From Paraprevotella sp. (lineage in GTDB: Bacteria > Bacteroidota > Bacteroidia > Bacteroidales > Bacteroidaceae): 9,395 nt of DNA. The notes under the pieces were generated by a model, which searched no databases, had not been told where the DNA came from, and saw only the letters and a program-made list of their open reading frames with translations. Where the stretch lies: the NCBI GenBank assembly GCA_017630975.1, contig JAGBUF010000373.1:1-9395 (forward strand), in the 5' to 3' direction. Positions 1-9,395 of the stretch are shown one piece after another (position 1 is the stretch's first letter; each line of letters begins with the position of its first letter). Both the position numbers and the translations under genes were made by a program.

Positions 1-2875
1 TCAAGTTAAAGTCCGGTGCATACAAGTAACCGCTCACATCTACGGGATTTTCTGGAGTCGCCTTCCGCGCCTTTTCTTGCAACAGTTCTACATATTCAGT
101 GCGCTTAAGAATATCCCATTGTGCTGCTATATCAGTTGAATCCGTATGACGGGTATATAACATTTCCGGTTTGGATTCGTCATATCCCCAATAGAACACT
201 TTTGTTTGTCCTTCGGAACTGACACCTTGATAAGAAATGACATACGCACCGTTTGTCAATGGTTGAATGGCATAATTGAACTCCTCCTGGTCCACGAATG
301 GTACTGCGCCTACTGCACCTGGATTGCCTATAAAGCTACAATCAATAGCGCTCTCAATACGCGAATTGAATGTATATTGACCTTTTGTCCTATGACGGAG
401 TGTAAAGTTCAGACCCTCCTCCGACAACACCGCTTGTGCATCACGTTCCTTTCCTGCTGAGAGGAATGTTCCCGAACCACGATTACGGAAATAATATGTT
501 CCTGCACTGATGGATTTGGCGGCTAACGGAGGGGTATCAACTGCAATCTCAACAAATTCGGGCGTAAACTCATTGTTCATACCATAATAGGTCAACGTCA
601 AATCGCTGAAGCAGAACCAACTGCCGGCCACCCTACTCGGGCTGACAATCTTGATGTCGAGCAAACCATCATCGCCTACGAACACATATAAATCGTTACG
701 GTAAAGTCCTTCATTAAAGCAAGCTTTCGCTTCATTGAGCCAATTCGGATAAGTATCGGACTTGCGTTCGCTTGCCCAATCGACAATCTGAGCGACACAA
801 CCATTCGCTTCAATATAGGCATTACTCATTTGTTTGAAACCCGCATTGGCATTCGTAACGCATACATCCGCCAACCCATTGCGATAAAACGCATGAAGCG
901 ACACTTTATAAAGACCTTTTGACAATCCTTTGACCGACTGGGTCAGTTGAGTTGTATTCTCATAGACTTCCAACGCACCATCTCCGGCTACAGGCGTACT
1001 TCCCGTCACCTTCCAACCACTTACGTTTAGCGTCAAGGCTGCATTAACAACCTTTGCAGTCATGTCAGTCGCCTTGAAATCATTTTCAGCATGTTGCGCC
1101 AAGGTTTGTTTTTCCATACCAATATTGGCTAGGGTCGCCACGTCTTTCTCTTGCTCAGCCAATTGCTGTGCTATTTGCTTGTTACGTTGTGCGCTCGTCA
1201 TTTGCTTCCATACAGTTGCTGTTTCCAACGTTGCATTCGTTGCGATGGACTTATCCGCATTAACTTTCAAATAACCTCCCGTAGAAATATTCTGATACAC
1301 CACTCCATTTTCGGTTTTTATGGCTTTAAGATTGGAATTGTCCAACAATGGGAAACCAAATGAGTCCGCTATATTTTGCGTTCCACCTACACCACCACGA
1401 CTAAAATACAATCCTGTTGTTTCATCATAAAGATAATACTTCTCCGAACCAGGTATCGTGGTATTAGTAAACTCCACCTGATAGGGCCACTGGTCATCGT
1501 TGGTGTAAATCTCATCCCAACCATGCATGATATATCTTGACGGCGCAGGACTGACAACTAACCATAACCGTTCGGTATTAGCGGGCACTTTAAATGCTAC
1601 ATCCACAGAAGTAGTGTCTGTTCCTGTACAATATACTTGGTCCTCTGTTTGATATACACGCGTACCATCCTTGAGCAAAGCGACATATCCCAACCGGAAT
1701 CCACGCGCATCGGCCTCAGCAAAGGTGATATATGCTTTTACGTCGGCTGCTGTAAACCTATCTCCATTCCAATAAGTCGGTACTTCGCCCTCTGCCAAAG
1801 CGCATCCCGGAGGAAGAGCTGTGAATCGCGTCGTCACTGTCGTTTCTGCAGCCGGCACTTCAAGAGGTATCACGTTGTAACCCGTTGACTGAGGACAAGA
1901 AGAATAACTCACTTGATACTTATTAACATCCACCGGGACATAATTATAAACAAAGTTTCCAATGTCATAATAGGACCCACGACGTTTCCAATCCTCATTC
2001 TTGAAGTCCCACGTTACAAAGTGCATGGCAGCGTCCATGTACTCACGATAGAGTTCATTGACGGTCATGTTCTGAATCTTCATATACACTTGATTCACGT
2101 CATCACCCCATGTCGTTCCACCTCGCCATATACGTCCCATCATATCTATGCCGTAATTGTCGCACCAATAATAGTGCATCCAATAACTTTGGTAGCGCAT
2201 CCACTCATGAGTAAACGCTAAATTATGCGTCTGACGATACATCCACATACTTGTAGAATACATTTCATCGGGATATGCCATAACTGCTTGCCAATTGGCA
2301 GTAGCCTCCCAAAACATACAACCGTTGGGACCAAATGAATAACGGAAACCTGCTGCACCCTTCAAATCACAATACACCTGATATTGGAACGAGTGTCCTA
2401 TCTCATGGGCGATGGTCGAGCCTACAGGATGACAGGTGGACGGACTGATCCACATTCCGCCAATCAAATCGTCAAAACCACTGCCGTATGCCATCCATTC
2501 GGTCGTATAATAAAGGCAAATTACCATTTTGTATTTATTCAGATTGCTGGTGGTTGCCAAATCTGCGAACTTCAACGTGTGAATGTTCAAAGTATAGAAC
2601 GTTTCCAACTTAGCCAATAAGTCATCTATATCCACTCGGAATTCTGACGGTACTGCCGTACTGTTCGGGGCGTTATTACCATAACCGTTTGCCCAGAACA
2701 CTACAATATTGGCACTTTCCCTACTACGATAACGACTCCATTGCACACTCACATTGTTGGTGGTAGTGCTCGCGTCATATCCTTCATTGTACATCTGTTG
2801 TGGGATATACACCTCTTTTTGTGCCATCAATGAGGCAGAGAATAAAAAAGCAAGAATAGCTAGAATCTTTTTCAT
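1..2875 (-). CDS. Large secreted DUF6055-like zinc metallopeptidase-type protein, C-terminus beyond window edge
   Basis: The frame is open from ATG at 2875 to the window edge (958 codons, no stop), so the protein is partial at its C-terminus. Residues 1-19 form a signal peptide ending in SLMAQ; with no lipobox cysteine it is not a lipoprotein. Residues 20 to about 475 resemble the DUF6055 family. They contain HEIGH at 157-161 (two zinc-binding His, catalytic Glu158) and E190 in FWEATANW as a possible third ligand, followed by a HGWDE...DQWPYQ segment (451-470). Beyond that I see a trefoil-like stretch (about 475-545, YYLYDETTGLYF), a Gln/Ala-rich helical segment (560-605), a galactose-binding-like beta sandwich (605-770), a second trefoil-like stretch (790-905), and the start of another NPVDVxxY-type module (942 onward). 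Peptidase activity and glycan binding are inferred from these motifs; the substrate is unknown. A T9SS sorting domain, if present, lies outside the window. It is transcribed separately from the upstream operon, after a 249-bp gap. Confidence 0.85.
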   Translation of the reverse strand, partial: MKKILAILAFLFSASLMAQKEVYIPQQMYNEGYDASTTTNNVSVQWSRYRSRESANIVVFWANGYGNNAPNSTAVPSEFRVDIDDLLAKLETFYTLNIHTLKFADLATTSNLNKYKMVICLYYTTEWMAYGSGFDDLIGGMWISPSTCHPVGSTIAHEIGHSFQYQVYCDLKGAAGFRYSFGPNGCMFWEATANWQAVMAYPDEMYSTSMWMYRQTHNLAFTHEWMRYQSYWMHYYWCDNYGIDMMGRIWRGGTTWGDDVNQVYMKIQNMTVNELYREYMDAAMHFVTWDFKNEDWKRRGSYYDIGNFVYNYVPVDVNKYQVSYSSCPQSTGYNVIPLEVPAAETTVTTRFTALPPGCALAEGEVPTYWNGDRFTAADVKAYITFAEADARGFRLGYVALLKDGTRVYQTEDQVYCTGTDTTSVDVAFKVPANTERLWLVVSPAPSRYIMHGWDEIYTNDDQWPYQVEFTNTTIPGSEKYYLYDETTGLYFSRGGVGGTQNIADSFGFPLLDNSNLKAIKTENGVVYQNISTGGYLKVNADKSIATNATLETATVWKQMTSAQRNKQIAQQLAEQEKDVATLANIGMEKQTLAQHAENDFKATDMTAKVVNAALTLNVSGWKVTGSTPVAGDGALEVYENTTQLTQSVKGLSKGLYKVSLHAFYRNGLADVCVTNANAGFKQMSNAYIEANGCVAQIVDWASERKSDTYPNWLNEAKACFNEGLYRNDLYVFVGDDGLLDIKIVSPSRVAGSWFCFSDLTLTYYGMNNEFTPEFVEIAVDTPPLAAKSISAGTYYFRNRGSGTFLSAGKERDAQAVLSEEGLNFTLRHRTKGQYTFNSRIESAIDCSFIGNPGAVGAVPFVDQEEFNYAIQPLTNGAYVISYQGVSSEGQTKVFYWGYDESKPEMLYTRHTDSTDIAAQWDILKRTEYVELLQEKARKATPENPVDVSGYLYAPDFNL

Positions 2876-2964
2876 GGTCTTGATATTATTAGAGATTAAT
2901 TTTATACAAAATCCACATTCGTTTTATATTTCTATTTTTGTTTAATATACTTACATTAAATAAA

Positions 2965-2994
2965 AAGATTTACAAATGCAAATTTATAAATCTT
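2965..2994. repeat. 8-bp perfect inverted repeat over the putative promoter
   Basis: AAGATTTA (2965-2972) and TAAATCTT (2987-2994) are perfect inverted copies separated by 14 bases. The spacer contains the candidate -7 box of the downstream metallopeptidase gene. It could be an operator for a dimeric regulator or a weak hairpin in the mRNA leader. The very high AT content of the region makes chance occurrence plausible. Confidence 0.4.
2979..2986 (-). promoter_or_regulatory. Candidate Bacteroidetes -7 box for the metallopeptidase gene
   Basis: On the minus strand the sequence is TAAATTTG, an exact match to the Bacteroidetes -7 consensus TAnnTTTG, about 104 bases before the ATG at 2875. A TTTG at 3001-2998 lies upstream, but the gap is only 11 bp, shorter than the usual 19-21 bp to the -33 element. 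The -33 part is therefore not supported. A second imperfect box (TGCATTTG, 2980-2973) overlaps and has a better 17-bp spacing to the same TTTG. The region is a likely promoter, but the exact box is uncertain. Confidence 0.35.
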
Positions 2995-3013
2995 AAACAA
3001 AGAGAACGAACGC

Positions 3014-3068
3014 AATTCATTGTAAATTCGTGTCAAGAGAAAATTTTGACTACTTTTTACAATGATTT
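3014..3068 (-). terminator. Nested inverted repeat downstream of ispF, possible terminator
   Basis: The outer arms 3014-3026 and 3056-3068 pair over 13 positions with one mismatch (core CATTGTAAA / TTTACAATG). Inside them a second pair, GTCAA (3032-3036) and TTGAC (3046-3050), forms a smaller hairpin. The element begins about 57 bases after the ispF stop and is followed on the minus strand by a T-rich stretch (3007-2995), so it may end the FAH–porU–porV–ispF transcript. It lacks the GC-rich stem and clean T-run of a classical intrinsic terminator. A protein-binding site is an alternative. Confidence 0.4.
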
Positions 3069-3124
3069 AATATCTAACTACAAGGATTTTTCTATTAAGT
3101 GAGAGTGTTTCTACTTATAACCTT

Positions 3125-3607
3125 TTATTCTTTCTCTACCAGTACGGTGGCATAAGCAGAAATGCCTTCCTCGCGCCCTGTAAAACCTAATTTTTCGGTA
3201 GTGGTGGCTTTAACGGAGACATCCTCTGTCTCTATACCCATGACGGATGCCAAACATTCTTGAATAGCGGGTATATGCGCTTTTAGTTTGGGGCGTTCAG
3301 CACAAACTGTAGCATCAATATTTCCAACACGATAGCCTTTTGTTGCAATTAGTTCTATCGTCTTACGCAGTAATATTTTACTATCTATATTGTGAAATTC
3401 TTCCCCTGTATCCGGGAAATGGTATCCTATATCACGCATATTTGCAGCACCAAGAAGGGCATCACAAATAGCATGTATCAACACATCGGCGTCGCTATGC
3501 CCCAAGAGTCCCATGGAATGTTCCAACCGGATACCACCCAACCATAGTTCTCGCCCTTCGACCAACCGATGAACATCAAAACCGAAACCTACCCTTATTT
3601 TTGCCAT
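3125..3607 (-). CDS. ispF: 2-C-methyl-D-erythritol 2,4-cyclodiphosphate synthase
   Basis: IspF converts 4-diphosphocytidyl-2-C-methyl-D-erythritol 2-phosphate to the 2,4-cyclodiphosphate, releasing CMP, in the cytoplasmic MEP pathway to isoprenoids. The 160-residue length is typical of the family. Visible hallmarks are the metal ligands D11 and H13 in FDVH and H45 in LIHAICDALLGA, the GHSDADV motif (36-42), FPDTG (64-68), and the C-terminal signature TTTEKLGFTGREEGI (135-149), which belongs to the nucleotide-binding region of the trimer. The ATG at 3607 starts directly at the conserved MAKIRVGFGFDVH. It begins 11 bp after the porV stop, so it is probably the last gene of the operon. It ends in TAA. 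The gene looks complete and functional. Confidence 0.97.
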   Translation of the reverse strand: MAKIRVGFGFDVHRLVEGRELWLGGIRLEHSMGLLGHSDADVLIHAICDALLGAANMRDIGYHFPDTGEEFHNIDSKILLRKTIELIATKGYRVGNIDATVCAERPKLKAHIPAIQECLASVMGIETEDVSVKATTTEKLGFTGREEGISAYATVLVEKE

Positions 3608-3618
3608 TATTGCAACAA

Positions 3619-4803
3619 TTAACGACCGCGACGACCACCGAATAAATCTTTTATACCATCCAAGTCAAATCCCAATGTGAATCGCATGGTCTGATCCAAT
3701 GGATTACTTTGAGCAGTGGAGAACACATAACCTGCGTCCAACGAGAAGACACTCATTCGGAAACCGGCTCCTACGGTCAAGTACTTTCTGTTTCCCTTAT
3801 TCTCGCTCTCATGATGATAACCCGCACGCAATGAGAAACGGTCGTTATAGATATATTCCAATCCGACGCTCCACTGTATTTCTTCCATCTCTTCTTTGAA
3901 TCCATTAGGAGCATCACCAAAACTTTTGAATATTCCGGCAATTGGAGATATGTCATAATAATCTTTTTGCACACGATCAGTGTAGTCTTGATCAGTTTCT
4001 CCCTCATTTTGTTTAGGGTAAGTAGGCACTAACAACTTATTGGCTTCAGCTGATAAAGAGAATTTATTATACTCATTGATAGGCACCAAAAAGTTAATAC
4101 CCAATCGTAAATTGGTCGGGATAAACTCAGCATTGTCATCACCACCATAAGAAATTTTACTACCGATATTACTGATGTTCAAACCGATTCCCAGGTTCCA
4201 CTCTCGACTACGCCCCATCAAATACTTATTCCAATATAAAGCAATATCCGCAGCAAAAGCTTTACCCGGAGTGGTCTCATCCGAATAATCGTAGGTGATA
4301 TCTGAATAGATGAAACGCAATGCAACCGCTGCAGAGAAGTTTTGGCTTAACATACGCGAATACGCCACATCTACCGCCAATTCATACGGACTGATGGTCA
4401 TATCTGCCTCACTATCCAATGAACTTCCTGTAGAAACCTCGCCCAAAGAGAAATAGCGCATGGAGGCACTCAATGCCTGATAGTCACCGATACGATAAAA
4501 TCCCGCCAAATATGCTAAATTGATATCATTGACCAATTGGCGCAACCAAGGGGTATAGCTGGCTGCCACTCCGGCACGAGCTATATTGAACGGGTATTTG
4601 GCTGGGTTCCAATATTGTGAATTCACATCAGCTTCAGTCGCAGCACCCAAATCACCCATCGCTCCGGCACGAGCATCAGGAGCAATGGATAAAGAAGTGA
4701 CTCCCGTCGTAATCGGATTAAACATATTTTTCTTATCCTGCGCATTCATCACAACAAATACGCCGAACAATAAACTACAAATAACTAATATATACTTTTT
4801 CAT
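3619..4803 (-). CDS. porV: Type IX secretion outer-membrane protein PorV (LptO)
   Basis: PorV is a FadL-like outer-membrane beta-barrel that takes cargo from the T9SS translocon by binding its C-terminal sorting domain and presents it to the sortase PorU. The start chosen here, ATG at 4803, gives 395 residues beginning MKKYILVICSLLFGVFVVMN, a standard signal peptide cleaved near NAQ-D. Two in-frame ATGs upstream (4809 and 4839, the latter 2 bp after porU) would put extra residues before the Lys-Lys and look less likely. After the signal peptide comes the PorV/PorQ-family N-terminus (about residues 31-71: TSLSIAPDARAGAMGDLGAA, then NSQYWNPAKYPF). The remainder is alternating amphipathic strand sequence ending in TMRFTLGFDLDGIKDLF. 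Length and context next to porU distinguish it from PorQ or a generic barrel. It ends in TAA. Confidence 0.93.
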   Translation of the reverse strand: MKKYILVICSLLFGVFVVMNAQDKKNMFNPITTGVTSLSIAPDARAGAMGDLGAATEADVNSQYWNPAKYPFNIARAGVAASYTPWLRQLVNDINLAYLAGFYRIGDYQALSASMRYFSLGEVSTGSSLDSEADMTISPYELAVDVAYSRMLSQNFSAAVALRFIYSDITYDYSDETTPGKAFAADIALYWNKYLMGRSREWNLGIGLNISNIGSKISYGGDDNAEFIPTNLRLGINFLVPINEYNKFSLSAEANKLLVPTYPKQNEGETDQDYTDRVQKDYYDISPIAGIFKSFGDAPNGFKEEMEEIQWSVGLEYIYNDRFSLRAGYHHESENKGNRKYLTVGAGFRMSVFSLDAGYVFSTAQSNPLDQTMRFTLGFDLDGIKDLFGGRRGR

Positions 4804-4841
4804 TTCCATACAATTAGATAGATATAAAACGAAACGCAACC

Positions 4842-6617
4842 CTATTTATTGCGCAGTATCACTATTTTATTGGTTCGCGACACAGCTTTGGTTTCACCTG
4901 ACATCAAGCTGACTCTATATAAATATACGCCCGTTGACAATGGCATGCCTGACGAAGTCGTCAAATTCCATCGCACCGGATAGATACCATTGGCGGTGGT
5001 TCCTTTTTCTGTATGCGACCAGAGAGTCCTTCCCGAAAAGTCGAACACTTCCAGTTTGAAAGCACACTCTGTTCCCGGTCTGTCATAATGAACAAAGAAA
5101 GTGGTTTGCTCCCTTGCAGGGTTCTCTGAACATGTCATACTGATCATCTCGGGTGACAATGATGCATCCACAAAGAAATCGAAAGTGACCGATGATGAAT
5201 TGTTCATCGTATCCCACGCACGGAACGTCAATGTATGCTTGCCGGTTTCCAAATGTGGAATGACAAATGCCAATTGACCTTTGCTATAATCACCCAACTC
5301 ATTAACGTAGTTACTGTTCAATACATATGTGGTCATCGGATTGTTGTCAATCACCAGTTCCAAGTCATGCCCCACGGATGTACCGGTTGTATTGATACCG
5401 CTTTTATCCTCCAATTTGGCTACGAAATAAGGTGTACTATTGACTTTTCCTCCCCACACAAAATCTTCACGATTGAGATAGGCTGTAATGGCAGGACCAT
5501 CTTTGTCCCCCAATAGCTCATTATCTGTACCTCCGACCAATACTTTTTCTGAATAGCCGTTTGCCTCACGTTTCCGCTCATTATCTATCGCATATAAAAC
5601 GATCCTTCCGTTTTCTCCAGAGTATTTTATATCCATCGGAATAGGAAACGTAATTGAGAAACGCCCTTGTCGAACGGAATCACTGCCCAGATACAAACGT
5701 TTATCGCGAGTCAAATAAGTAAATTGTTCGTCAGACTGTCCGTCATTATTCAAACAGGTTATCAAACTCTCGCTGTCGTATACAGAGGTTGAAATCACGC
5801 CGGAGTAGTCAGATAGTTCCACCCCACTTTCGTCAGTGATATATCCTGCCACCTCGGCCATACTTCCCGCCTTAAAATCGGTCGTAACATTTGTACCCTT
5901 TACAGGAATGCCATTGATGCTTTCAACAACAACCTTGTATTCGGGCATACCCAGCACCAGTGCCGGGTCACCTAATAGTACATAATGTAATTTATTTTCT
6001 GTACGATCCTTATCAGGGTTGTTCCTATCGGAATTCAACAACACCAACTTAGCCAACCGTAAAGCATCACCGATGGAATACCTCTTACCATTCTCGTCTT
6101 TACCCAAAACATATCGGATATAATGACGATTGATCATACTGTTCTGTGTGGCATATACCGTTCTCGTCGTACCGACAAAAGCGATTGCCGAACCGGTTGG
6201 ATGCAGGACTGCTCGCTCACCTATGTTGTCTTCTATCATATCAAAAGGAGACACATCACATGCTGCTGTAAACCATAATGGTACCTTATTGGAAGTAAAT
6301 TGATTGAAGTCGTCTAACAATATAGCTTGTTCATGCGATAAACTGCGTGGATTACCATGCCCCATATAATTCATGATTAAACAACCCTCATCCATCTGTT
6401 TCTTTACGTCTGCTTCAACTCCGGGATAGGTATTACTTGTCGTGGTAGAAACACGCTTATATGCATCCCAAAGGATACGATTCACCTGCATTTCCGGATG
6501 ATGTTTCTCAACTAGCTGTGCAATTTCCTCTGCCATTTCCAAATGTTGATTGTTATCTCCATCATCTCCCATAACGCAAATCACATTTTTCCATGGACCT
6601 GCATTCTTGTTCTGCAT
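4842..6617 (-). CDS. porU: PorU sortase, C-terminal part after the internal stop
   Basis: This 591-codon stretch has the same frame as the upstream part and begins two codons after the internal TAA; the ATG at 6617 is probably an internal Met of the original protein. It carries the rest of the Peptidase_C25 (gingipain-type) domain: PWKNVICVMGDDGDNN (8-23), the catalytic His in YMGHG (H87), the catalytic Cys in TAACDVSPFD (C120), and LLGDPAL (214-220) at the domain end. Beta-sandwich regions follow (about 225-490). The last 94 residues (498-591) resemble a T9SS sorting domain, with ENPAREQTTFFV, then STGVYLYRVSL and KIVIL. PorU keeps such a domain and works at the cell surface with PorV. As a separate product this fragment lacks a signal peptide and could not reach the surface. 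It ends in TAG, 2 to 38 bp before porV depending on the porV start. Confidence 0.9.
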   Translation of the reverse strand: MQNKNAGPWKNVICVMGDDGDNNQHLEMAEEIAQLVEKHHPEMQVNRILWDAYKRVSTTTSNTYPGVEADVKKQMDEGCLIMNYMGHGNPRSLSHEQAILLDDFNQFTSNKVPLWFTAACDVSPFDMIEDNIGERAVLHPTGSAIAFVGTTRTVYATQNSMINRHYIRYVLGKDENGKRYSIGDALRLAKLVLLNSDRNNPDKDRTENKLHYVLLGDPALVLGMPEYKVVVESINGIPVKGTNVTTDFKAGSMAEVAGYITDESGVELSDYSGVISTSVYDSESLITCLNNDGQSDEQFTYLTRDKRLYLGSDSVRQGRFSITFPIPMDIKYSGENGRIVLYAIDNERKREANGYSEKVLVGGTDNELLGDKDGPAITAYLNREDFVWGGKVNSTPYFVAKLEDKSGINTTGTSVGHDLELVIDNNPMTTYVLNSNYVNELGDYSKGQLAFVIPHLETGKHTLTFRAWDTMNNSSSVTFDFFVDASLSPEMISMTCSENPAREQTTFFVHYDRPGTECAFKLEVFDFSGRTLWSHTEKGTTANGIYPVRWNLTTSSGMPLSTGVYLYRVSLMSGETKAVSRTNKIVILRNK

Positions 6618-6620
6618 ATA

Positions 6621-6623
6621 TTA
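6621..6623 (-). other. porU: In-frame premature TAA inside porU
   Basis: On the minus strand the codons around this point read ATG GTG GAT AAG ACC ATA TAA TAT ATG CAG AAC. From the porU ATG at 8612, TAA is codon 664 and the ATG at 6617 is codon 666, so both parts share one frame and no indel is involved. The reading MVDKTI-stop-YMQNKNAGPWK is continuous C25-domain sequence on both sides. A single-base change from AAA, CAA, GAA, TCA, TTA, TAC or TAT would produce this stop. Confidence 0.9.
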
Positions 6624-8612
6624 TATGGTCTTATCCACCATGATTTGGGCTTGTCTTTCAGAGGTTACCGGGAATCGTCCTATACCCAGATCCACCTTGT
6701 TTTCTTTCAAGGAAGCCCCTTCGCCATCATCCAGCAAACCAAAATAATCCTCCATGACATAACTTGATGTATGACTTAAAGAATTCTGCGATTCATAACA
6801 CAACAAATACTGATTAGGGTCCAAACCTCTTGTTGCCGATGTCAACATTCTGTTGTCCCAAACGCCATCACCAAATAGCAACAAATAGCGGGGCATATCA
6901 CTTTCATTCGTTGCACGGTCATAAAACATTTTCATCATCCGCCGATAGGCTGTAGCATCAGGAGTTCCGGAAGAGAACTCATTGTAAACCATATCAGCTC
7001 TGACTACATGCACACGCATGCCATCCATCGCACGATGTGCTTCAGCCAATCGCTCCGCCTGCGCATACAGCTCACCACTTGCCGGAATAATAATCACCAT
7101 ATCAGCGAACGACAAGGCATGTAAATTCTGATTAGGAATTTCGCCAATATAAGCGGGCGAAGGATAATCAGCATCAACATCCACTGCCACATATTCACGA
7201 GTAGCATCGTCCACAGGCACGGTATAGGTGGTTCCTTGCAACACTCCCTTCATCTCAGCCATTGGTTCCCCTCTTCTCCCCAATCGCCACAATTGAACAT
7301 GAGCACGTCCATTGGTATTGATGACAAAATTTGCTTTTCCACTCTTGTGATGTCTGAAAGACAGACAAGGTGTTGTCAATTTCAAGTGACGCACATAATT
7401 CAATTCTATATAACTCAATCGTGCATCCACTCCTTGCTTTGAAGTCAATATGACCTGTGTACCTGAATTATCTTTTTTTAATAAAGATTTGACCTGATAT
7501 GTCTTTGTGGTTTCCATTGCAGCATAATAACTGCTTGGCACTTTAGCTATCGTAAATTTCGTCTGTTGTTCGCCATTGACTGTCGGTGTAACAGAGAATG
7601 CTGACGACGAGTTCGCGCTGAAGGATATTGTCAATTGGGCGGGGTCGGATGGCACAGCATCTATTGTTTCCAACAGGTAAGAACGTGTATTGGAACTGGC
7701 ATAGTTGAACGATTCATAGAATGTTCTACCTGCAGAATACCACGAGTATTCCTCTTTTTTATAAAGAGTGTTGGAGGGCACAGTTGTCAGGCGTTCGGTA
7801 GCTGTAACCCCCTCATTCCCGACACGAATGGACAAAGGTGCGTCCCCTTCTGTCAGAAAATAACAAGCCTGGTTGGCATAGGTATTGCTTCTGTGGGTAG
7901 ATTTTCCACTTGCATCAGGGGCAGACCAAGAAATCAACCCCTTACCATAAAACAAAACACCTCGTTGGTCACGGTACAAAGGTACTTCTTCCAAATCGTC
8001 AAAATCTGTATCGGCATTGATCTTTTCATCCTGCACATGTCCGCCATAACCAAATAGTTTGACCCGTGACACATCACGAAATCCCATTTTCTGCAGGTCG
8101 GACGGCGTCAGACGATAGACGCCATCTGCTGTAATCCCAATTTTCACCCAACGGCCTTGTGCCAACACAGAATTTTCGACATAACGGGATGAGCTGCTTT
8201 TTAATGCACTATTCCTTTTTATAAACTGAGGCTGACGATGAATCTTCATCTTAAAACTCATCAACTTATAACAAGTCTTACCTCGTTTCACTATCGGAAT
8301 AAAGGAGACATCCAAAAATCCCTTCTTTCGAGATACAGTCACATTGGTGGTCACCAGTGGTTCGCTCGGTAAAGACTCCGCCCAATTAGCCACGTCTTTG
8401 GTTTCTTTCGCTGTCAGTTGCTTGTACTCCGGATAATCCAAAGTCACCTCATAACGATAGTCATTGTAATCCTCCTCTAATGGGATGACCTCGTTATAAT
8501 ATGCCGGAAAGCTGTCGGCTTTCAGCACGTTCCAATCGACATAAGTGAATTCCTGTGCCACGACAGTCATCGCAGCGCACAGAAACATCAATATGGCTAA
8601 TTTCAATCTCAT
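6621..8612 (-). CDS. porU: PorU sortase, N-terminal part, ended by the internal stop
   Basis: This 663-residue part begins with a signal peptide (1-20, MRLKLAILMFLCAAMTVVAQ). An N-terminal region typical of PorU and gingipain-like proteins follows, including GRWVKIGITADGVYRLTPSD (153-172). The Peptidase_C25 domain starts near 501 (SFADMVIIIP) and includes YLLLFGDGVWDNR and EDYFGLLDD. Translation stops at TAA in the middle of that domain, before the catalytic His and Cys, so this product alone cannot act as a sortase. With the downstream part the gene would encode about 1256 residues, close to known PorU proteins (about 1150-1250). The start at 8612 is only 3 bp after the stop of the FAH-family gene, suggesting cotranscription and translational coupling. 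Functional status depends on whether the TAA is real. Confidence 0.9.
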   Translation of the reverse strand: MRLKLAILMFLCAAMTVVAQEFTYVDWNVLKADSFPAYYNEVIPLEEDYNDYRYEVTLDYPEYKQLTAKETKDVANWAESLPSEPLVTTNVTVSRKKGFLDVSFIPIVKRGKTCYKLMSFKMKIHRQPQFIKRNSALKSSSSRYVENSVLAQGRWVKIGITADGVYRLTPSDLQKMGFRDVSRVKLFGYGGHVQDEKINADTDFDDLEEVPLYRDQRGVLFYGKGLISWSAPDASGKSTHRSNTYANQACYFLTEGDAPLSIRVGNEGVTATERLTTVPSNTLYKKEEYSWYSAGRTFYESFNYASSNTRSYLLETIDAVPSDPAQLTISFSANSSSAFSVTPTVNGEQQTKFTIAKVPSSYYAAMETTKTYQVKSLLKKDNSGTQVILTSKQGVDARLSYIELNYVRHLKLTTPCLSFRHHKSGKANFVINTNGRAHVQLWRLGRRGEPMAEMKGVLQGTTYTVPVDDATREYVAVDVDADYPSPAYIGEIPNQNLHALSFADMVIIIPASGELYAQAERLAEAHRAMDGMRVHVVRADMVYNEFSSGTPDATAYRRMMKMFYDRATNESDMPRYLLLFGDGVWDNRMLTSATRGLDPNQYLLCYESQNSLSHTSSYVMEDYFGLLDDGEGASLKENKVDLGIGRFPVTSERQAQIMVDKTI

Positions 8613-8615
8613 TCG

Positions 8616-9233
8616 TTATCTTACATTAAAGTCCAACACCTTGCGGTCTTGTATATACCCCTCAAAGTGTTGCCCAATCTGAGCGGGCGCAACTCCTACG
8701 GGTGTTCCTGTGAACAGCAAATCACCTATTTTCAGCGTAAAGAATCTGCTCACATAGGCAATGATATCATCTACAGAATGTATCATATCTCCCGAATAGC
8801 CCCGTTGCATTGTTTCTCCATTGATATCCAAACGGAACGGTATCTCTTGAATGGCAGGAAGTTCCTCTTTCGCCACAAAATCGCCGATCACCGCCGATCC
8901 GTCAAATCCCTTGCAAAGTTCCCAAGGCAGACCGCCTTCCCTGAATTTCCGCTGCATATCACGTGCCGTAAAGTCTATTCCCACCGTCACTGCATCGTAA
9001 TAGCGATGTGCAAAGCGCGGAGCGATGTTCTTCCCTAACCGACAGATACGCACCACCAATTCTGTTTCATAGTCGCACTGTTGTGTGAAATCGGGAATAA
9101 AGAACGGTTTACCGTCCTTCAACAACGCCGAGTCAGGTTTGGCAAAGATTACAGGCTCTTCCGGTTTATATAACGTTCCATCCAACTCTTTATTGTGCTC
9201 GGCATAGTTCATGCCTACTGCAATAATCTTCAT
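8616..9233 (-). CDS. Fumarylacetoacetate hydrolase (FAH) family protein
   Basis: This 205-residue cytoplasmic enzyme belongs to the FAH superfamily, whose small single-domain members act as acylpyruvate hydrolases, oxaloacetate decarboxylases or catabolic hydratase/isomerases. Visible hallmarks are the metal-ligand pair E56 and E58 in CDYETELVVRI, D87 in VGIDFTARDMQ, the conserved Lys108 in WELCKGFDGS, and TGTPVGVAP (175-183). Family membership is clear, but the substrate cannot be read from the sequence. The ATG at 9233 opens with MKIIAVGMNYAEHNKEL, the normal N-terminus of this group. It is probably the first gene of the operon with porU, porV and ispF, ending in TAA 3 bp before porU. I see no direct functional link to secretion; shared expression may be incidental. 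Confidence 0.92.
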   Translation of the reverse strand: MKIIAVGMNYAEHNKELDGTLYKPEEPVIFAKPDSALLKDGKPFFIPDFTQQCDYETELVVRICRLGKNIAPRFAHRYYDAVTVGIDFTARDMQRKFREGGLPWELCKGFDGSAVIGDFVAKEELPAIQEIPFRLDINGETMQRGYSGDMIHSVDDIIAYVSRFFTLKIGDLLFTGTPVGVAPAQIGQHFEGYIQDRKVLDFNVR

Positions 9234-9261
9234 AACTGTATTATTTTTATCGTTCCAAATA

Positions 9262-9269
9262 CAAAAATA
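9262..9269 (-). promoter_or_regulatory. Candidate Bacteroidetes -7 box for the FAH–porU–porV–ispF operon
   Basis: On the minus strand the sequence is TATTTTTG, matching TAnnTTTG, about 28 bases before the ATG at 9233. That is a reasonable short leader. No TTTG-type -33 element is present at the expected 19-21 bp upstream, so the call rests on the -7 box and its position alone. Confidence 0.4.
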
Positions 9270-9395
9270 AGGATTTATTTCTGACCTGATATCCGATTTA
9301 ACATAAAAACTCTAAAAACGTGTGGGGGCGCACAGCGTGCTGAAATAAGTTGACAGATTAAACATAGATTCCTATATAGGTATACTGCACGATAA
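9270..9395. other. Upstream non-coding region with a small palindrome
   Basis: I see no convincing gene here. It contains a short GC-rich patch (9319-9340) with only 4-bp self-complementarity, and a perfect 10-bp palindrome CCTATATAGG at 9371-9380. One minus-strand frame is open from the window edge for about 39 codons, but its composition does not resemble a protein tail I recognise. The end of an upstream gene cannot be excluded. Confidence 0.35.

What the first reader, a model, noticed from the sequence alone, without database searches (positions are those of the whole stretch)
6600..6660. In-frame TAA nonsense codon splits the T9SS sortase gene porU within its catalytic domain
Both halves are in one frame (TAA is codon 664, the next ATG is codon 666), and recognisable C25-domain sequence runs across the stop. 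The catalytic His (YMGHG) and Cys (TAACD) and the CTD-like tail all lie after it. No other damage is visible, so the event is very recent, an error, or somehow tolerated. If real and not bypassed, the strain should fail to remove CTDs and anchor T9SS cargo at the surface, a strong phenotype for this group.
Basis: partly seen in the sequence, partly recalled or inferred. Interest (0 to 1): 0.7.

Follow-up and report, generated by a model that had tools for sequence, protein, structure and literature searches.

The report
Stop codon interrupts porU sortase gene
In this fragmented draft genome, the gene for PorU, the enzyme predicted to fix exported proteins to the cell surface, is cut by one stop codon that a 99% identical protein and all 17 other genomes searched of its genus lack, and this is likely a sequencing or assembly error rather than a real loss.

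Summary
One minus-strand frame (8612-4842) encodes PorU, the type IX secretion sortase, interrupted once by TAA at 6621-6623 (codon 664) inside the C25 peptidase domain; the next ATG is codon 666. It is not a natural two-gene form: an intact 1256-aa protein, 99% identical, is in public data, and 17 of 17 other same-genus genomes have porU uninterrupted (which reads through and counts stops). The window copy shows no excess of derived residues, so the stop is very young or not biological. The assembly is poor (383 contigs, 70.7% complete), and an in-frame TGA cuts its best ileS match, an essential gene, found in a sample of 60 other contigs. I think a consensus or assembly error, or collapsed strain mixture, most likely (0.65). 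A real strain-specific porU null remains possible (0.30): a PorU mutant of Paraprevotella clara grows normally but loses trypsin degradation (PMC9477747), and this genome keeps SprA/Sov, PorV and 13 other sorting-tail matches over the cut-off. Read-through, recoding or a working two-piece sortase are unlikely. No reads were available. Interest is low.

The parts
6621..8612 (-). First piece of porU, 663 aa: start, N-terminal 'long form' region, and first part of the C25 peptidase domain, ending at the stop
   Evidence: PF01364 2-146; NF033707 1-517, 409.9 bits, just under the 420 cut-off; NF052318 over its cut-off
6621..6623 (-). In-frame TAA, codon 664
6615..6617 (-). Next in-frame ATG, codon 666 (possible restart)
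4842..6617 (-). Second piece of porU, 591 aa: rest of the C25 domain and the C-terminal region
   Evidence: PF01364 151-374; NF033707 521-1095, 603.4 bits
6357..6359 (-). His of the GHG motif (residue 752), predicted catalytic
   Evidence: position; catalytic role recalled from the C25 family
6258..6260 (-). Cys of the AACD motif (residue 785), predicted catalytic
   Evidence: position; catalytic role recalled from the C25 family
4905..5123 (-). C-terminal sorting-tail-like match (TIGR04183), at the cut-off in the genome search, below it in the protein scan
   Evidence: 23 bits, marked over cut-off; 19.5 bits, cut-off 23
3619..4839 (-). porV, partner of PorU, uninterrupted; the listed ORF begins with TTG two bases after porU, and a later ATG is the likelier start
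   Evidence: NF033710, 512 bits

Best explanation
The porU sortase gene in this draft genome carries a single in-frame TAA that is likely an error of sequencing, assembly or strain mixing, laid over a gene that would be intact in the living organism. Shown: one stop in an otherwise continuous PorU frame; an intact 99% identical protein elsewhere; porU without a stop in 17 of 17 other genomes of the genus; no excess of derived residues in the window copy; a second in-frame stop in the best ileS match of the same assembly. Inferred: that an in-frame stop in ileS cannot be real in a living cell, so the assembly carries at least one false stop, and that porU's stop is of the same kind. The intact gene would make PorU, predicted to be exported, held at the outer membrane with PorV, and to cut the C-terminal domain from type IX cargo while joining the cargo to lipopolysaccharide.
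For: Intact protein P0121, 1256 aa, 99% identity, representative of a cluster of 45; 12 residue differences plus the stop. 17 of 17 other same-genus genomes have porU without a stop; of 101 genomes searched 80 had a match, and G000 alone has a stop inside the gene (five other flagged matches show none inside the gene on re-alignment). No decay: at the three differing residues after the stop (835, 1153, 1226) the window keeps the residue commoner among 18 relatives. Assembly: 1.82 Mb, 383 contigs, 70.72% complete, 3.83% contamination. In-frame TGA in ileS, G000:C110, its two sides matching adjoining parts of one Pfam domain and of TIGR00392; no other G000 match of comparable score (409 against 246 bits); 15 of 17 other genus members have an uncut ileS over the cut-off.
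Against: No reads were seen, so depth and base quality are unknown. The assembly is not riddled with lesions: 72 genes aligned to the sister genome G013 (25,642 aa) gave one in-frame stop, porU itself, and no frameshift. The case for false stops rests on one other gene, ileS, on a contig that could be contamination or another strain and where the gene is cut by the contig end. Among 23 same-frame ORF pairs, nine could not be judged by Pfam. P0121's database holds open frames, so it shows that intact copies exist, not how common they are; I did not see the other 44 members of its cluster.
Confidence: 0.65

Rival explanations
1. A real, very young nonsense mutation makes this strain a natural PorU null. 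The first 663 residues would be exported but lack the catalytic His and Cys and the C-terminal tail; cargo would not be trimmed and anchored.
For: Frame otherwise intact and unaccelerated; PorU is dispensable for growth of Paraprevotella clara in vitro (PMC9477747, passages); anchoring is naturally lost through a nonsense mutation in another gene, wbpB, in P. gingivalis HG66 (PMC4031482, passages); low density of other lesions.
Against: Stop in ileS in the same assembly. None of the 79 other genomes with a match shows a stop inside porU. Translocon, PorV and sorting tails are without stops, though a young loss would leave them so.
Confidence: 0.3
2. Two-piece PorU: ribosomes restart at the ATG one codon after the stop, and the two pieces together act as a sortase.
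For: An ATG lies one codon after the stop. One relative, P0009, is a database protein beginning exactly at the corresponding Met.
Against: The break is inside one C25 domain. The second piece starts inside the domain and shows no export signal by eye, while PorU acts at the cell surface. 17 of 17 other genus members encode one chain. P0009's contig could not be read; a contig end or an error would explain it as well.
Confidence: 0.03
3. The stop is read through by a suppressor tRNA or an altered code.
For: None found.
Against: TAA ends 88 of 132 stop-to-stop frames of 200 aa or more in 60 contigs; ARAGORN found no anticodon for a stop codon in the 27 tRNA loci of an assembly about 71% complete; relatives do not keep a stop here.
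Confidence: 0.02

Closest known systems
PorU, type IX secretion sortase (NF033707; Pfam C25 PF01364; solved structure 6za2)
   Same: The two pieces cover the PorU model in adjoining stretches; the intact relative P0121 scores 1040.7 bits against a cut-off of 420 and aligns to 6za2 over residues 142-1252
   Different: One in-frame stop at codon 664
PorU insertion mutant of Paraprevotella clara JCM14859 (PMC9477747, passages)
   Same: PorU interrupted, in a genus to which this genome probably belongs; viable
   Different: Made in the laboratory by plasmid insertion and tested; here a single stop codon in an unnamed draft genome, untested
Porphyromonas gingivalis HG66, nonsense mutation in wbpB (PMC4031482, passages)
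   Same: Natural stop codon in a gene needed to anchor type IX cargo
   Different: The broken gene serves A-LPS synthesis, not the sortase; shown by experiment in that strain

Membership tests
PorU sortase | Match to the curated PorU model over its whole length | tested here: met
   Pieces match 1-517 and 521-1095 of 1095 with 409.9 (just under the 420 cut-off) and 603.4 bits; intact relative 1040.7
PorU sortase | One continuous chain holding the C25 domain with His and Cys | tested here: not met
   TAA at codon 664 parts the domain; His 752 and Cys 785 lie after it
PorU sortase | Activity: removal of the CTD and anchoring of cargo | not testable with these tools
   No strain or protein available
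Strain-specific pseudogene (real nonsense mutation) | Stop absent from close relatives | tested here: met
   P0121 and 17 of 17 other genus members uncut
Strain-specific pseudogene (real nonsense mutation) | Stop supported by reads or by an independent assembly | not testable with these tools
   No reads held
Strain-specific pseudogene (real nonsense mutation) | Relaxed selection after the stop | tested here: inconclusive
   No excess of derived residues, but only 12 differences; a very young loss would look the same
Recoded or programmed stop | Stop conserved at this place in relatives | tested here: not met
   29 of 30 loci read at this column have a sense codon; the window is the only stop
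Sequence or assembly error | Other implausible lesions in the same assembly | tested here: met
   In-frame TGA in ileS; against it, no lesion other than porU's in 72 genes aligned to G013
Sequence or assembly error | Reads disagree with the consensus base | not testable with these tools
   No reads held

The most novel reading that the evidence does not exclude
A wild Paraprevotella-like gut strain has just lost its PorU sortase by one nonsense mutation while keeping the translocon and cargo, so it would release or retain its type IX proteins instead of displaying them: a natural sortase null.
Probability: 0.3. Interest if true: 0.4.

Novelty: not a real feature. Interest (0 to 1): 0.13.

Why it matters
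If an error, it is a caution against reading gene loss from a single base in a fragmented draft assembly. If real, it would be a natural counterpart of the laboratory PorU mutant of P. clara, and would let one ask whether sortase-null strains persist in nature and what becomes of surface traits such as trypsin degradation.

Tried and rejected
Two-gene PorU as the normal state: rejected, porU is one chain in 17 of 17 other genus members. Recoding and suppressor tRNA: rejected. A second, intact porU in the same genome: none found, in an assembly about 71% complete. Recurrent porU stops in other genomes: five other matches were flagged with one stop (G073, G072, G061, two in G095); re-alignment put G073's at the last residues and showed none inside the aligned stretch of the other four, so rejected. 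General decay of the assembly: 72 genes against G013 gave no other stop and no frameshift, and the reverse comparison of 52 genes gave none in G013. A trypsin-binding cargo: a large Omp28-like, Ig-like protein lies on C187, but its Omp28 match is under the cut-off. Searches with the two pieces listed no copy of either from the same species (best 82% over 54% of the second piece, 120 of 501 hits listed; best 58%), but only capped candidates were scored and a database clustered at 90% can hide fragments in the cluster of a longer member. Literature: the listings and abstract starts (20 of 133 listed) showed no natural porU nonsense strain; nothing beyond those searches of open-licence papers is claimed.

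Rough rate: about 4.8% of single-base changes in the window's genes make a stop; two stops in 266 kb would mean about 1.6e-4 changes per base (range 1.9e-5 to 5.7e-4). This is post hoc, from two cases, one of them the finding itself.

Full report
What is there. The minus strand of the window carries, in order, a fumarylacetoacetate-hydrolase-family gene, porU, porV, ispF and a DUF6055 gene cut by the contig end. The window is contig C107, bases 1-9395, of a draft assembly of 1.82 Mb in 383 contigs, 70.72% complete with 3.83% contamination; a metagenomic origin is my inference from that. The porU frame runs 8612-4842 with one internal stop, TAA at 6621-6623, codon 664; codon 666 is ATG. The pieces match adjoining parts of the PorU model (1-517 and 521-1095 of 1095) and of the C25 domain (2-146 and 151-374 of 374). 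The intact relative P0121 gives one C25 match over 2-374. The finding's coordinates and description are right.

What organism. Named relatives point to Paraprevotella: P0128, 66% identical over the searched part, is named PorU of Paraprevotella sp., and the best named locus, L002, is an uncultured Paraprevotella at 52%. The genus name is inferred.

Is the split normal for the group? No. In one search I searched 101 genomes (G000 and 100 relatives) with P0121; 80 have a match. Each of the 17 other same-genus genomes has a nearly full-length match with no stop. Outside the genus five matches were flagged with one stop (G073, G072, G061, two in G095); on re-alignment the G073 stop lies at the last residues and no stop falls within the aligned stretch of the other four, so these look like the normal ends of genes. 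At the column itself, the 30 loci fetched give 29 sense codons and the window's stop. Of 237 listed proteins from two searches, 221 cover the column, with ten different residues; this shows the column is variable but is no test for stops, since a list of proteins holds open frames only.

How young is it? P0121 (1256 aa, representative of a cluster of 45) differs from the window at 12 residues and at the stop. Set against 18 of the listed relatives that I chose from the top, the window has the commoner residue at 82, 489, 835, 1153 and 1226, P0121 at 127, 227 and 487, and 112, 130, 493 and 598 are unclear. All three differences after the stop favour the window. So there is no trace of relaxed selection in the window copy, though 12 differences give little power. 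In the stop column P0121 has a residue that none of the 18 others has, and one that a codon a single base from the stop can encode, whereas the codons of the 17 other genus members are two or three bases away. The column therefore seems to have changed once in this species before the stop; a single further change, real or false, would suffice.

Is it an error? There were no reads. I looked instead for other lesions in the assembly. I fetched 60 other contigs (257 kb; 59 taken by contig number, C187 for its Omp28 match) and listed every pair of same-frame stop-to-stop segments of at least 100 aa parted by one stop: 23 pairs. All 46 halves were scanned with Pfam. In 13 pairs the two halves match different families, in 2 pairs only one half has a match, in 7 pairs neither has, and in 1 pair both match the same domain in adjoining stretches: on C110, 1-51 and 57-145 of the anticodon-binding domain, and 478-747 and 751-856 of ileS TIGR00392. 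So nine pairs could not be judged. G000 has no other match to ileS of comparable score (409 bits; next 246 bits on C349); matches like the one on C349 occur in most genus members beside their full ileS and probably belong to another synthetase. In the genus, 15 of 17 other genomes have an uncut ileS over the cut-off; G011 scores below it without a stop, and G013 shows only the lower-scoring kind. Three low-scoring matches in that search, to other synthetases by their score, were also flagged with one stop (G015, TGA; G009 and G017, TAG); I did not examine them. Isoleucyl-tRNA synthetase is essential (established knowledge), so a stop inside its only copy is most easily a false base, or DNA from a mixture. 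Against this, tblastn of G013 proteins on the same 60 contigs and the window tested 72 genes (25,642 aa) and found one stop, that in porU, and no frameshift. The assembly is thus not full of lesions, but it has at least one that is hard to believe.

Weighing. One implausible stop per 257 kb outside the window would predict about 0.015 false stops in a gene of porU's length (arithmetic); I take a real nonsense allele of a given conserved, non-essential gene in a given strain to be rarer, a few per thousand (judgement, no call). That gives error the better odds, about 2:1 after allowing for the weak base of one case. I set 0.65 for error or mixture, 0.30 for a real null and 0.05 for the rest.

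If it were real. The exported first piece would lack His 752, Cys 785 and the C-terminal tail. A restart at codon 666 is possible, but the second piece begins inside the C25 domain and has no export signal visible by eye, so it would stay in the cytoplasm. PorU sits on the surface with PorV and cuts the CTD while attaching lipopolysaccharide (PMC8545088, passages). In P. clara a PorU insertion mutant had no growth defect and lost trypsin degradation completely (PMC9477747, passages). The rest of the system seems present: SprA/Sov over three contigs without stops, PorV, and 15 matches to the type A sorting tail, 14 of them marked over the cut-off, one of these PorU's own. P. gingivalis HG66 shows that a natural nonsense mutation can abolish anchoring, there through wbpB (PMC4031482, passages).

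Verdict. A correctly seen stop codon in a real porU gene; most likely not a biological feature. A natural sortase null is the interesting alternative, and reads would settle it.

Noticed in passing
L120 (G000:C110), 3-1832, stop at 888-890: In-frame TGA splits ileS; both sides match adjoining parts of the ileS model and of one anticodon-binding domain.
   Followed up: yes
P0009 (protein, 587 aa, contig of 4082 bases): A PorU relative (48% identical) whose listed protein begins at the Met matching codon 666, the same place as the break here; its DNA could not be read.
   Followed up: partly
P0238 and P0239 (proteins): P0238 aligns to the first 533 residues of PorU and bears an OmpA domain; P0239, with a very similar start, ends at residue 496 though its contig is 33.6 kb. 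Rearrangement or assembly chimera.
   Followed up: partly
L134 (G000:C187), 3-3320, minus strand: Large Ig-like protein with a weak Omp28 match, cut by the contig end; in make-up it recalls the Omp28-related cargo of P. clara needed for trypsin degradation (PMC9477747), with which it was not compared.
   Followed up: partly
window 2-2875, minus strand: DUF6055 protein cut by the contig end, with a weak match (52.9 bits, cut-off 625) to the Svx/AvrXca family.
   Followed up: no
G063:C19, G065:C81, G073:C237, G081:C3, G100:C90: Two PorU-like genes lie side by side in these genomes of other families.
   Followed up: no
21 of 101 genomes: No PorU match in 21 of 101 genomes; of the 20 listed, 17 are of the same family, 12 of these at least 90% complete: patchy presence of PorU.
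   Followed up: no
G015:C105, G009:C45, G017:C55: Low-scoring synthetase matches in other genus members flagged with one in-frame stop; not examined.
   Followed up: no
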